A stretch of 64,000 nucleotides of DNA, taken from contig CP087219.1 in NCBI GenBank assembly GCA_020912385.1, forward strand, positions 806,001 through 870,000. Direction: 5' to 3'. The notes below the pieces were generated by a model. It was not told where the DNA came from. It did not search any database and was given only the letters and a program-made list of their open reading frames with translations. This DNA is from Neofusicoccum parvum (Eukaryota; Ascomycota; Dothideomycetes; Botryosphaeriales; Botryosphaeriaceae). Below, piece by piece: positions 26,706-51,575 of this stretch (its first letter is position 1; every line of letters begins with the position of its first letter). The position numbers and the translations under genes are program-made.

Positions 26706-27900
26706 ATGCGATCATTGGCTCCTCACAAAAATCATTTTCCTGCGTTGTCTGTCTTGTCTGTCTTCATGGGCATTTTTGGTGGTTCATGTCTCTCTCGTTT
26801 CTGCGGTCCCAGTAATCATTCTTTTTTCCTGTCCTGCACAATAAAAATTTTACATAAGGGTGGCCGGTCATGGGAAAGGCGGGAGGGGCTCTTGACGCGA
26901 AAAAGAAACGAATGAACTGTTTTAGATGGCGGGATGGCTGATGATGAAGGGCTTTGGTGGAATTGGCGGGCGGAGGGACTGATGCACGCGCATTTATGGT
27001 TTGCATGACCTTTTCTTTTTTTTTTTTTCTTCTCGAGCTCTGCTTCTCTTCGACTACACAGAGGTTATGGAGAGCAAGATGGAGGTATAGGGAGAATTAT
27101 TCCTTTCTTTTGCACCTTATCGTGAATTACTCGAGAATGGCAAGTCTAAAAAAGAATGCGGGCTGCTGTTGTTGGTCTGTGAGGGAAAGAGGGGGAGCAG
27201 AAGCAGATGGGGCTGGTAGTTGTATATACATAAAAACACGTGTGCACGAGTGGTTTCTGTTGGTGCATTCTGGTAGGCGTTGTTGGGCTTCAAATCTTGG
27301 ATCTTGATTGCTCTACTCGGTCGTTCTCTACGTGCTGTCTGCCTCGCCTTCCCTCGTCCATCGTGTCTCTCTGCCGTCTAGCGGATGGGCAGACAGAAGC
27401 GAATGGGACTTCGGTTGGGATAGGTGGTCCCATTCGTCCTCCGTGAAGGGATGGAGATATCGTGTTGATGTAGATGAACAGTGCATGGCTTAGAGAACGA
27501 CTTGCCCGTTTTGACTACCATGCGTGGGAGAACGAGGTGGTTGATGCTTGAGCTCCGACCGAAACGAGAAAACGGCGACGTTCCCCACGCCAATCCATGG
27601 TCAGTTCGTGAAGTATTGCACTACATGTAGTTGAAGTGTTCGTCCGGACGCGAATGTGCGGTGGAAGAAACGCCAACCCGATCTGGACGGATGCTTCAAC
27701 TCCCCATGAAGGGTAGGCACGTGGTGCAATACTATCCGAACCGACCCCGTAGTGTAGTGGAACCAAAATCCCAACATCCGGACGGCCAGCAGCTGCGCTG
27801 CCCCCGTGGTAGCCGAATTACTCCAAGCCGACCAAATGCCGTGGAAGTTGCGAGAAAAGCGTCCCTGTAGCTGCCTGAAATTGCGCCGCGAGACAGACAA
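26706..27900. other. Convergent spacer holding hairpin repeat copy 1
   Basis: About 1.2 kb between the converging stops of the deubiquitinase and Dre2 genes. It is less GC-rich than coding DNA, with a T-run near 27018. A 120-bp inverted repeat occupies 27613-27732. No gene seen. Confidence 0.6.
27613..27732. repeat. Dispersed inverted repeat (hairpin element), copy 1
   Basis: The outer ends are GTATTGCA and its complement TGCAATAC. Inward, each arm carries an AGTTGAAG(T/C)(G/A)T(T/C)CGTCC(G/A)GA-like block facing the other across a spacer of about 32 bp. The left arm (27613-27648) is shortened relative to the right (27681-27732), which keeps the CATGGGGAGTTGAAGCATCC form when read on the minus strand. 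It lies 168 bp past the Dre2 stop. The same arm sequence recurs at 32.0, 43.8 and 51.4 kb, so this is a repeat family. Probably a MITE. Confidence 0.75.
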
Positions 27901-28977
27901 TCATAGCTGGATATCGTTGTTGAGCAGGCGAACCTCCTCCCCGGGCTTGAACGCTGGTAGTCCGATATATGGGCAGCCGTCGCAGCGGAACGCGTCGCCC
28001 AGCGCACAGTTTCCGCAGCTGCCGACCTTGCCTTGAACGGTAAAGTCGACCTCGGCGAGGTCGTCCGTGTCCAGCTTCATGGCGTTCAGGGCCTTGTCGG
28101 CGGCTTCCCGCTTGGCGGCATCTTCGGCCTCAAGCTGCTGTGCGAGCCCGCAAGTGCAGTCCTTGCACGCGCGCCTCCGTTTGCCTACCTTGGGTCGGCA
28201 CTCTGGTGCTACCTGGCTGTCAGTCACGCGGTCAGGCGCCCAAGGCGGTGAGATCGGCTACTTACGAGGCATGACGGGTCTCATTTTATCTTGCTCGGTC
28301 AAGAGATCGTCCTCGTCAATCAGGTCATCGTCATCGTCGTCCTCTCCGGTCACCACAGGCTCGCCAAAGTCGTCGCTGAAGTCGACAAACCCAACGCCGG
28401 CCGGCTTCGGAGGCTCCTGCGATACGCTCTTTCGCTTCCCGTTCAAGGGGAGAGGAACAGCCCCGTTCTCGGCAGCGGCCGTCTTCTTCTTGCCGAAGCG
28501 CAGAGGAACAGCCTGCTCGACGGTATTATCGGGCTTGACCATGCCGTCTCCATCCTGATTAACCAGGCCTGCGAGAATGGCCTCCGTCTTCTCCGCGCCG
28601 TCGGTGCCGAACCGGCCGTCCTCACTGCGGAACCTGCCTCCTGGTCTCAGGGCCTCCACAAGCTTGCTCATAAGGTCCCTCCCAAGCAGCTTCTGGCTCT
28701 CGACGCGCGTGCCGTCGGCATCAGTCAGGAGGAGGATGATGTCGTAGGTGGAGGCAGGGAGTGCAGCCAGGCCGACTGCCAGGCGATCGAGCATTTGCAG
28801 GTCGGTGACTGTGCGGTCATGGCTCTCGAATAGGCGGTTAAGCAATTCGGGATGGGCAGCTACGGAGGGTGGGGCCACGAGCAGCGTGCGAGGAGCGGCA
28901 GCGGCAGCGGTTTTGGTGGGGTGAGCGGCGACCGGAGCGAAGTCTGAGGACAGGTCAAGGGTGACGGAGGGCGCCAT
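27901..28977 (-). CDS. DRE2: Fe-S cluster assembly protein Dre2 (anamorsin/CIAPIN1)
   Basis: Exons 28977-28266 and 28208-27901, split by a 57-nt intron, encode 339 residues. The N-terminal half is the methyltransferase-like domain without a recognisable SAM motif. An acidic linker with a run of Asp follows. The C-terminal CIAPIN1 domain has both metal sites: PPPEC...ACKDCTC (CX10CX2CXC type) and CGNCALGDAFRCDGC (twin CX2C). The intron falls just before the first cluster motif, and use of the TAG acceptor restores the usual VMPPPEC. Dre2 works with the diflavin reductase Tah18 to feed electrons to cytosolic Fe-S assembly. It acts in the cytosol and possibly the intermembrane space. Confidence 0.96.
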
Positions 28978-50044: not shown

Positions 50045-50761
50045 ATGTCAGAAGTTCACTGCGCATTTGGCCGCCCTCCTGGTCCGCACGACAGTCTCGT
50101 GCGCTTTTCGGATCCTGATGCCCTGGACACTGCGAGGCCAGCGAAGGCGTCCAGCGGCACCAAAAAGCGCAGGGCCGCGAGCAAAGACAAGCACGGCCAC
50201 CCCTCCGGCAGAAAGTCCCCCGGACACGACCCCAAGGCGGCCGCAGACAAGGCCAAGAGAGAAGAGTATCTGCGGAAGAACCGCGAGGCCGCGTCCAAAT
50301 GCCGGGCCAAGAAGAAAGACTGGACGCAGCAAATGGACGAGCGCTACCGGGACCTCGCCACGAGGAACCAGCTCCTCCGCGCAGAGCTGGACACCCTCAG
50401 CAACTCGGTGTACGAGCTGAAGGAGATGGTGCTGCAACACGCCGACTGCGGCTTCTTTCCAATCGAAGGTTTCCTGCAGGCCGAGGCGAAGAAGGTCCAA
50501 GCGAGCATTCGGTCCCGGCCCTTCGCCGAAACCTCGACGCAGCCATCGCCGCCAGACCGTGTCAGCTCGTATGCTCAATCCGGCGCCAGGCTGTCTGTGG
50601 ATGATGCTGGAGGTATCTCGGGCTACGGCAGCATGAGCCCTCCTTCGGGAACCGCCTGGACGGGGATGGGCTACACCGATCCTGCAAGCTTTTCTTCGGT
50701 ATCGACCGCAGAGGGACTCGGCTCGGGGCATGGCTGGTTCGGCAAGCTCCAGCAGACTTGA
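50045..50761 (+). CDS. bZIP transcription factor (ATF/CREB-like)
   Basis: A single exon, 238 residues, from the ATG at 50045 (frame open upstream but without a better start). The basic region KREEYLRKNREAASKCRAKK (about 78-97) has the N-x2-AA-x2-CR DNA-contact signature. A leucine zipper follows, with heptad positions running through YRDLATRNQLLRAELDTLSNSVYELKEMVL (about 105-135). The N-terminus is Lys/Ser-rich and the C-terminus is Ser/Gly/Pro-rich and disordered. The basic region is closest to the ATF/CREB group, which binds TGACGTCA-like sites in fungal stress and conidiation control. No obvious MAP-kinase-docking N-terminal region of the AtfA kind is present, so it is a shorter member. 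Confidence 0.88.
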   Translation: MSEVHCAFGRPPGPHDSLVRFSDPDALDTARPAKASSGTKKRRAASKDKHGHPSGRKSPGHDPKAAADKAKREEYLRKNREAASKCRAKKKDWTQQMDERYRDLATRNQLLRAELDTLSNSVYELKEMVLQHADCGFFPIEGFLQAEAKKVQASIRSRPFAETSTQPSPPDRVSSYAQSGARLSVDDAGGISGYGSMSPPSGTAWTGMGYTDPASFSSVSTAEGLGSGHGWFGKLQQT

Positions 50762-51575
50762 CTGCCTTCTCACACAAAGTCGGTCAATATTCGACGTCGA
50801 AGCGACCGAATCTAAGAGAGTTCTTTCCCCTCCGATTCTGGGGGCTCTTTTTCCTTTTTAATTATTACTACGTTCACGAAGTCGACGTGCTTTATGTTTC
50901 CAGTTCTGTTTTTCACGAAATACCCACGAAGTTCGAGGACGACAGCCTTATATGGGCGTTGATGGACCATGAAACGGCATTCAGGACATACAAGAGCTGT
51001 AATATCACACGTTCATTCTTCAATGGATGAACCTGCGAAGAACAGGAATGAGCTTGGGGTCGGTAATTCACTTGGAGGTGCTTCAGCATTTTCAGGGCCC
51101 AATACATGGGAGTGATACTATGCGCCTGGTATATAAGTGGGCCTCGCAGGTGGCTCAACGGATGTTCTTTGTGCTTATCAAGTGGATGCGCTACTAGATG
51201 AGTGGATGTGAGATTTGGCTGATTGAAGAGTGGAAGACTGAGCGTGTTCTGTTTCAGCCTGGGATATTCGAAATTGTGGATTTCTGAAGGTTGAGGCAGA
51301 GTCTTTGCGGCGAGTAAAACACAGTTTGTCTGTATTAATCTTAAATTGGATCATGGAAAGCAAATCGGTGGATGAGTAGACTTGAAAGTGATAAGAGACC
51401 GGCTCGGAAGGTATTGCAACATGCGCATACATTCATGGGCAGTTGAAGCATTCATCCGGACACAGAAACGTAGTAAAAGAATTATCAACCCCATCCGGAT
51501 GAATGCTTCAACTGCCCATGTGTGTACGTGTTGCGATACCTCGTAAATTAACCACGTGTCTTAACAAGTTGGCCG
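50762..51575. other. Convergent spacer holding hairpin repeat copy 3
   Basis: About 810 bp between converging stops of the bZIP and STAND-N genes. It is AT-rich compared with coding DNA. The best-kept inverted repeat occupies 51411-51539. No gene seen. Confidence 0.6.
51411..51539. repeat. Dispersed inverted repeat (hairpin element), copy 3 (best kept)
   Basis: Two arms of about 48-51 bp (51411-51461 and 51492-51539) are near-perfect complements around a 30-bp loop. Each arm has GTATTGCAAC or GTATCGCAAC at its outer end, then CATGGGCAGTTGAAGCATTC and ATCCGGA inward. The arms would form one strong hairpin as DNA or RNA. The right end is 36 bp past the stop of the STAND-N gene. No target-site duplication is obvious by eye. 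Confidence 0.85.

What the first reader, a model, noticed from the sequence alone, without database searches (positions are those of the whole stretch)
27613..51539. A dispersed 120-135 bp inverted-repeat family sits only in spacers between convergent genes
Four copies share the arm core CATGGGCAGTTGAAGCATTC with ATCCGGA inside and GTATTGCA at the outer end: 27613-27732, 31967-32096, 43755-43850 (degenerate) and 51411-51539. Seen directly: each is two facing arms around a short loop, and each lies in a 3'-to-3' spacer, roughly 36-270 bp past a stop codon (Dre2, Axl2-like, aldolase-like, STAND-N). Most other spacers, including all divergent promoters, have none. Inference: a MITE family that survives or inserts preferentially at 3' ends, or a co-opted bidirectional terminator or 3'-UTR hairpin that could also yield small RNAs from overlapping convergent transcripts.
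Basis: partly seen in the sequence, partly recalled or inferred. Interest (0 to 1): 0.8.

Follow-up and report, generated by a model that had tools for sequence, protein, structure and literature searches.

The report
Old mini-transposon family, mostly ordinary
The four inverted repeats are worn copies of a small non-coding jumping element scattered in hundreds of places through a plant-infecting fungus; they are not tied to convergent genes across the genome, but the inner part of their arms is preserved better than simple decay predicts.

Summary
The four copies are real and, in this window, all lie in 3'-to-3' spacers: 4 of 6 convergent spacers hold one, 0 of 15 others. The host is a Botryosphaeriaceae fungus, probably Neofusicoccum. 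The whole element is about 172 bp (a 146-bp form also occurs), nearly palindromic, usually with TA at its ends. I estimate about 900 recognisable loci. In L019 one copy sits in the loop of an older copy, and joining the flanks restores the older copy. It is a MITE family, mostly old. The positional rule fails elsewhere: of 30 other loci, 8 are in tandem spacers, 2 convergent, 1 divergent, 4 inside predicted genes and 15 not fully classable. Copies are rare in exons and were not seen within 300 bp of a 5' gene end. One thing stays unexplained: inner-arm words survive five to six times as often as outer-end words, and inner arms differ about half as much as the loop. Double arm changes are mostly at CpG sites and only slightly above expectation, so an RNA-hairpin role is unsupported, not excluded.

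The parts
27596..27751 (+). Copy 1 (W1), nearly full length; right end ...CCGACCCCGTA; between the USP-type hydrolase (+, stop at 26705) and Dre2 (-, stop at 27901)
   Evidence: profile E 8.4e-38; gene finder; Pfam; RNA fold z -8.4
31952..32114 (-). Copy 2 (W2), nearly full length; between a predicted 137-aa + gene (30432-31036) and the Axl2-like gene (-, stop at 32368)
   Evidence: profile E 1.8e-34; left neighbour weak, HABP4-type at 20.5 bits against a cut-off of 21.8
43746..43851 (+). Copy 3 (W3), inner arms and loop only, outer ends not recognisable; between the aldolase-like gene (+, stop at 43684) and an aminotransferase gene (-, 45282-46567)
   Evidence: profile E 2e-15; Pfam; RNA fold z -4.5
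51393..51557 (+). Copy 4 (W4), arms of 33 bp at 94% complementarity inside longer, looser outer arms; between the bZIP gene (+, stop at 50761) and a gene with a 97% N. parvum relative (-, stop at 51576)
   Evidence: profile E 1e-41; RNA fold z -11.4

Best explanation
[quoted passage not shown] Shown: TA at most ends, dispersal over the contigs, one copy nested in the loop of an older one, and copies ranging from near the consensus to barely recognisable. Inferred: a transposase supplied from elsewhere, probably of the Tc1/mariner/pogo kind that uses TA targets, moved them in more than one wave; insertions in exons and next to promoters were lost and the rest kept, so the 3'-3' location of all four window copies is a local run and not a rule. 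The better preservation of the inner arm core is shown but its cause is not; most likely (inference) the core was the transposase-recognised part, kept constant in successive source elements while their ends and loop changed.
For: Inner-arm 18-mer 1299 hits against 22 reversed; end 16-mer TACGAGGTCGGTTCGG 103 against 3 at up to 1 mismatch; outer 25-mer 114 against 0. TA at both ends in 13 of 27 copies with alignable ends, at one end in 9, at neither in 5; 7 of 34 left out for gaps. L019: flanks match the profile at 13.9 and 8.4 bits apart and at 33.5 bits joined. Three copies lack 13 bp at mirror places of both arms. Spread over tandem, convergent and divergent spacers.
Against: No autonomous partner was found: 17 DDE_3 and 17 DDE_1 matches, none within 5 kb of the listed end hits by eye (lists capped at about 100 places). 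No orthologous empty site from another strain or species was available. Uneven decay along the element is not expected of one simply decaying MITE family. All four window copies in convergent spacers is about 1 in 400 by chance.
Confidence: 0.92

Rival explanations
1. Many copies have been co-opted after insertion: the inner arm core is held by selection as a DNA site in gene flanks (for example a protein-binding, boundary or 3'-end signal) while loop and ends decay.
For: Inner-arm words 1299 and 953 (controls 22, 17) against outer ends 230 and 267 (controls 22, 6) and loop 204 (control 16). Inner arms differ from their group consensus by 10.0% against 22.0% for the loop in 23 older copies and 4.6% against 10.7% in 10 younger ones. 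Removing widely shared differences leaves 6.6% against 11.6%. Simulated neutral decay with a similar choice of copies gives an inner/loop ratio near 0.91 in two age models, against 0.46 observed.
Against: Several old remnants keep one arm and have lost the other. Only 3 pairs of exact arms at the 53-bp spacing among 75 exact hits (counted by eye). Loop differences are more often shared between copies (73 of 183) than inner ones (41 of 155), as changing source elements would give. The third simulated age model left too few differences to judge (ratio 0.48, range 0 to 2.2).
Confidence: 0.12
2. The hairpins act as RNA: bidirectional terminators, 3'-UTR hairpins or small-RNA sources between convergent genes, kept for that role.
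For: All four window copies between convergent genes; strong folding on the strands tested; 21 of 26 double changes in the inner stem keep a Watson-Crick pair.
Against: 18 of those 21 are at CpG columns, where decay in both arms gives A-T by itself; at other columns 3 of 7 double changes keep the pair; 26 double changes against 19.8 expected column by column. G-U 58 and A-C 46 in the inner stem, 46 and 30 outside CpG columns: only a mild lean to G-U. Convergent spacers are not enriched elsewhere. No Rfam match.
Confidence: 0.05
3. The family is specifically targeted to, or retained in, spacers between convergent genes.
For: 4 of 4 window copies and one older remnant at tile position 71440-71545.
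Against: Of 30 other loci 8 tandem, 2 convergent, 1 divergent, 4 in predicted genes, 15 unclassed. Of 8 remnants viewed outside the window, three of them possibly chance, 1 is convergent, 5 tandem, 1 divergent, 1 in a predicted gene.
Confidence: 0.04

Closest known systems
mimp MITEs of Fusarium oxysporum (passages of PMC3599309)
   Same: Short non-coding elements with inverted ends in a filamentous ascomycete, in several subfamilies; mobilised by a Tc1/mariner transposase (Impala) in mimps.
   Different: Mimps are 200-220 bp with about 27-bp end repeats and a non-repeat centre, mostly on lineage-specific chromosomes and found in promoters of effector genes. Here nearly the whole element is arm, copies lie on core-looking contigs, are more numerous, and none of 12 measured 5' gene ends is within 300 bp.
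mFot5, a pogo-type MITE of the same fungus (passages of PMC3599309)
   Same: MITE, in places downstream of genes; ends like those of a transposon of the Tc1/mariner superfamily.
   Different: Its partner Fot5 is known; no partner was found here.
Stowaway MITEs of plants (search listing only, PMC6881990; TA target recalled)
   Same: Short palindrome-like elements of the mariner group with TA targets, in gene-rich DNA.
   Different: Different host kingdom; sequence relation not tested.

Membership tests
MITE (non-autonomous inverted-repeat transposon) | Short, non-coding, inverted repeats at both ends | tested here: met
   About 172 bp, 74 self-complementary positions per arm in the reference
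MITE (non-autonomous inverted-repeat transposon) | High copy number of dispersed copies | tested here: met
   1299 arm hits against 22; about 900 loci estimated
MITE (non-autonomous inverted-repeat transposon) | Target-site duplication | tested here: met
   TA at both ends in 13 of 27 alignable copies, one end in 9, neither in 5; nested case in L019. A TA that belongs to the element itself cannot be told from a duplication without empty sites in relatives
MITE (non-autonomous inverted-repeat transposon) | Autonomous partner with matching ends | tested here: inconclusive
   34 transposase-domain matches, none near listed end hits; lists capped, flanks of the matches not read. One suggestive pair of ends was two MITE copies
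Tc1/mariner/pogo superfamily | TA target | tested here: met
Tc1/mariner/pogo superfamily | Ends like those of a known member of the superfamily | not tested
   No library of transposon ends was available; the superfamily is an inference from TA alone
Conserved structured RNA | Compensatory changes in the stem | tested here: inconclusive
   26 double changes against 19.8 expected; 21 keep the pair, 18 of these at CpG columns
Conserved structured RNA | Match to a curated family | tested here: not met
   0 matches in the window at gathering threshold
Terminator or small-RNA locus | Transcript 3' ends or small RNAs at the copies | not testable with these tools
   No transcript data

The most novel reading that the evidence does not exclude
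A MITE family has seeded the genome with hundreds of copies of a core of about 26 bp that selection keeps after insertion while loop and ends decay: a wholesale co-option of a transposon arm as a DNA-level signal in the gene flanks of a filamentous fungus.
Probability: 0.12. Interest if true: 0.65.

Novelty: new member of a known kind. Interest (0 to 1): 0.3.

Why it matters
It accounts for an abundant repeat family in a Neofusicoccum genome (about 900 loci by estimate, but only some 0.3% of the bases), for which the held papers searched gave no description, and it shows that the striking 3'-3' pattern of one window is local. If the inner core were shown to be under selection, the family would be a countable case of a transposon arm turned into hundreds of genomic sites, testable by comparing orthologous copies between sequenced Botryosphaeriaceae.

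Tried and rejected
Autonomous parent: two facing ends 1.6 kb apart at C10:920014-921606 were fetched. They are two separate copies; the longest open frame between them is 152 aa, and the two frames scanned have no Pfam match. A second facing pair 6.7 kb apart on C10 (1949567 and 1956236) was not read.

Known structured RNA: Rfam, 0 matches in the window.

Different outer ends in older copies: a second outer 18-mer taken from the older copies gave 267 hits against 6, far from the 1299 of the inner arm, so one alternative end does not explain the excess; several might.

Choice of copies as the cause of the inner-arm excess: simulated neutral decay gave mean inner/loop ratios of 0.91 (range 0.59-1.25) and 0.91 (0.73-1.16) for two uniform age models. 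A third, exponential model left almost no differences, and its mean of 0.48 (0-2.2) says nothing.

Second inverted repeat of the window (62480-62529 and 62697-62746): no other copy in the genome at E 1e-5, so not part of this family.

Literature: nine text searches were answered; I saw no description of this family in their listings. One search looked for arm words in the papers' text and found only an unrelated bacterial paper (listing). Passages of PMC8336260, PMC8905617 and PMC3599309 were read; the first two have no occurrence of 'MITE' in the main text. All other papers were seen as listings only. Repeat databases and subscription papers were not searched.

Rows dropped: L001 (the window's own copy 4) was left out of the 30-locus tally. 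W3 was left out of the counts. Predicted genes under 200 coding bases were left out. In one search the limit was 300 for the tile and 200 for the loci. L015 and L025 are two copies in one spacer, both counted as tandem, so the 8 tandem loci are 7 spacers. Control positions lie 130 bp apart and are not independent; the p values are nominal. The 30 loci are 29 best matches to copy 4 plus one pattern hit, not a random sample.

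Full report
WHAT WAS CHECKED. The window is C14:806001-870000 of a 43,992,428-base genome in 18 contigs. One window protein is 97% identical to a protein recorded as Neofusicoccum parvum. A ubiquitin hydrolase is 96% identical over 75% of its length to N. parvum UCRNP2, with Lasiodiplodia, Macrophomina and Diplodia at 85-87%. For the Axl2-like gene the best named relatives are Diplodia (72%), and no Neofusicoccum protein is among the 15 hits. The host is therefore a Botryosphaeriaceae fungus, most likely Neofusicoccum. 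I wrote a gene finder trained on the window and 100 kb on each side. Its genes agree in strand and place with the frames that Pfam supports (Dre2, USP-type hydrolase, class II aldolase-like, bZIP, He_PIG). Four of the nine frames scanned have no Pfam match.

THE OBSERVATION. Three of the copies form the first-listed direct-repeat family of the window, and copy 4 has arms of 33 bp at 94% complementarity. A profile from 34 aligned copies finds four copies in the window and nothing else below E 0.8. All four lie between convergent genes by the gene finder; the left neighbour of copy 2 is the least certain (137 aa, HABP4-type match at 20.5 bits against a cut-off of 21.8). The 21 spacers are 6 convergent, 6 divergent and 9 tandem.

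ANATOMY. I aligned the 30 genome copies (the first is copy 4 itself), one more found by pattern (L031) and copies 1-3. They show an element of about 172 bp: TACGAGGTCGGTTCGGATAGTATTGCAACACGTG, a middle stretch, an inner arm CATGGGCAGTTGAAGCATTC(A/G)TCCGGACG, a loop of about 29 bp, and the reverse complement of it all. Three copies (L021, L026, L027) lack 13 bp at mirror-image places of both arms, giving a 146-bp form; facing outer words at the matching spacing recur. TA is at both ends in 13 of 27 copies whose ends align without gaps, at one end in 9 and at neither in 5; 7 of 34 were left out.

NUMBER AND AGE. The inner 18-mer GTTGAAGCATTCATCCGG occurs 1299 times with at most 3 mismatches, the reversed pattern 22 times. 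In the 264-kb tile 10 such hits fall at 7 loci, which scales to about 900 loci, a rough estimate. Outside the window the profile finds five remnants in the tile at E 0.12 or better; the best hit in the reversed tile has E 4.6.

MOBILITY. In L019 a full-length copy lies in the loop of an older, degenerate one. The flanks alone match the profile at 13.9 and 8.4 bits; joined with one TA they match as one copy at 33.5 bits over model positions 38-121. This is the strongest single piece of evidence for transposition. No autonomous relative was found: DDE_3 and DDE_1 give 17 matches each, none within 5 kb of a listed end hit by eye, the lists being capped. The one suggestive pair of ends was two MITE copies.

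POSITION. I classed 30 loci other than the window's own with the same gene finder, and 2007 control positions every 130 bp in the tile. Loci: tandem 8, convergent 2, divergent 1, intron 3, exon 1, not fully classable 15. Control: exon 1103, tandem 179, convergent 96, divergent 67, intron 18, not fully classable 544. Convergent among fully classed: 2 of 11 against 96 of 342 (Fisher 0.73). A 5' gene end within 300 bp: 0 of 12 against 173 of 499 (0.010), or 0 of 11 (0.019) without the duplicated spacer; the nearest is at 311 bp. A 3' gene end within 300 bp: 7 of 19 against 178 of 571 (0.62). Nearest gene end a 3' end: 14 of 20 against 386 of 728 (0.17). Some intron and exon calls are probably gene-finder errors. 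Of eight remnants viewed in the tile outside the window, three of them possibly chance, one is convergent, five tandem, one divergent and one inside a predicted gene. The safe statement is that the family is not confined to, nor evidently enriched in, convergent spacers, and that it is rare in exons and next to 5' gene ends, as expected if such insertions are selected away.

THE UNEXPLAINED PART. Under simple decay of one family, equal-length words from any part of the arms should survive equally often, and loop words half as often. Observed with at most 3 mismatches (reversed control in brackets): inner arm, inner half 1299 (22); inner arm, outer half 953 (17); outer end 230 (22); older-type outer end 267 (6); loop 204 (16). 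In aligned copies the inner arms differ from their group consensus by 10.0% (121 of 1211), the loop by 22.0% (144 of 655) and the outer ends by 23.8% (338 of 1423) in 23 older copies, and by 4.6% (24 of 527), 10.7% (31 of 290) and 8.3% (54 of 649) in 10 younger ones. Leaving out CpG columns, the inner arms differ by 7.1% and the loop by 19.4%. Outer figures are inflated by misaligned indels; loop figures, held between the arms, much less so. A neutral simulation with a similar choice of copies gives an inner/loop ratio near 0.91 in two age models, not 0.46; a third gave too few differences to judge. Either the core is constrained after insertion, or source elements of different ages shared the core (for instance as a transposase-binding site, an inference) and differed elsewhere. 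Differences shared by six or more copies are commoner in the loop (73 of 183) than in the inner arms (41 of 155), which fits the second reading in part; removing them leaves 11.6% against 6.6%. I think the second more likely; neither is shown.

RNA HAIRPIN. The copies fold strongly, as any near-palindrome must. In the inner stem 26 double changes are seen against 19.8 expected column by column. 21 of them keep a Watson-Crick pair, but 18 of those are at CpG columns, where decay in both arms gives A-T by itself; elsewhere 3 of 7 keep the pair. G-U pairs (58) outnumber A-C (46) slightly, 46 to 30 outside CpG columns. This is weak at best for selection on RNA pairing. Transcript evidence could not be had.

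NOVELTY. MITEs are a known kind. I saw no description of this family in nine answered text searches. A comparative study of Botryosphaeriaceae genomes reports 6.84% repetitive elements for its Neofusicoccum genomes and has no occurrence of 'MITE' in its main text (PMC8336260, passages). At about 900 loci the family would make up only some 0.3% of this genome.

Noticed in passing
window 62480-62529 and 62697-62746: A second inverted repeat, arms of 50 bp at 88% complementarity 167 bp apart, with TA at the outer ends; no other copy in the genome at E 1e-5.
   Followed up: partly
C1:4223281-4223543 of G000: Inner-arm hits repeat with a 58-bp step between two facing outer ends, so one element seems to hold a short tandem array of arms and loops. 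Letters not read.
   Followed up: no
window 43762-43837 (copy 3): The loop of copy 3 continues the stem: the loop word next to the left arm has its reverse complement next to the right arm (fold), unlike most other copies.
   Followed up: no
C1:1.27-1.30 Mb, C3:343-364 kb, C4:2.59-2.615 Mb and the window: Copies look clustered, several within a few tens of kb, while the 200 kb round the window holds only weak remnants. Not tested.
   Followed up: no
L028 1400-1660: Parts of two copies run into each other, perhaps another nested or tandem insertion.
   Followed up: no
   Followed up: no
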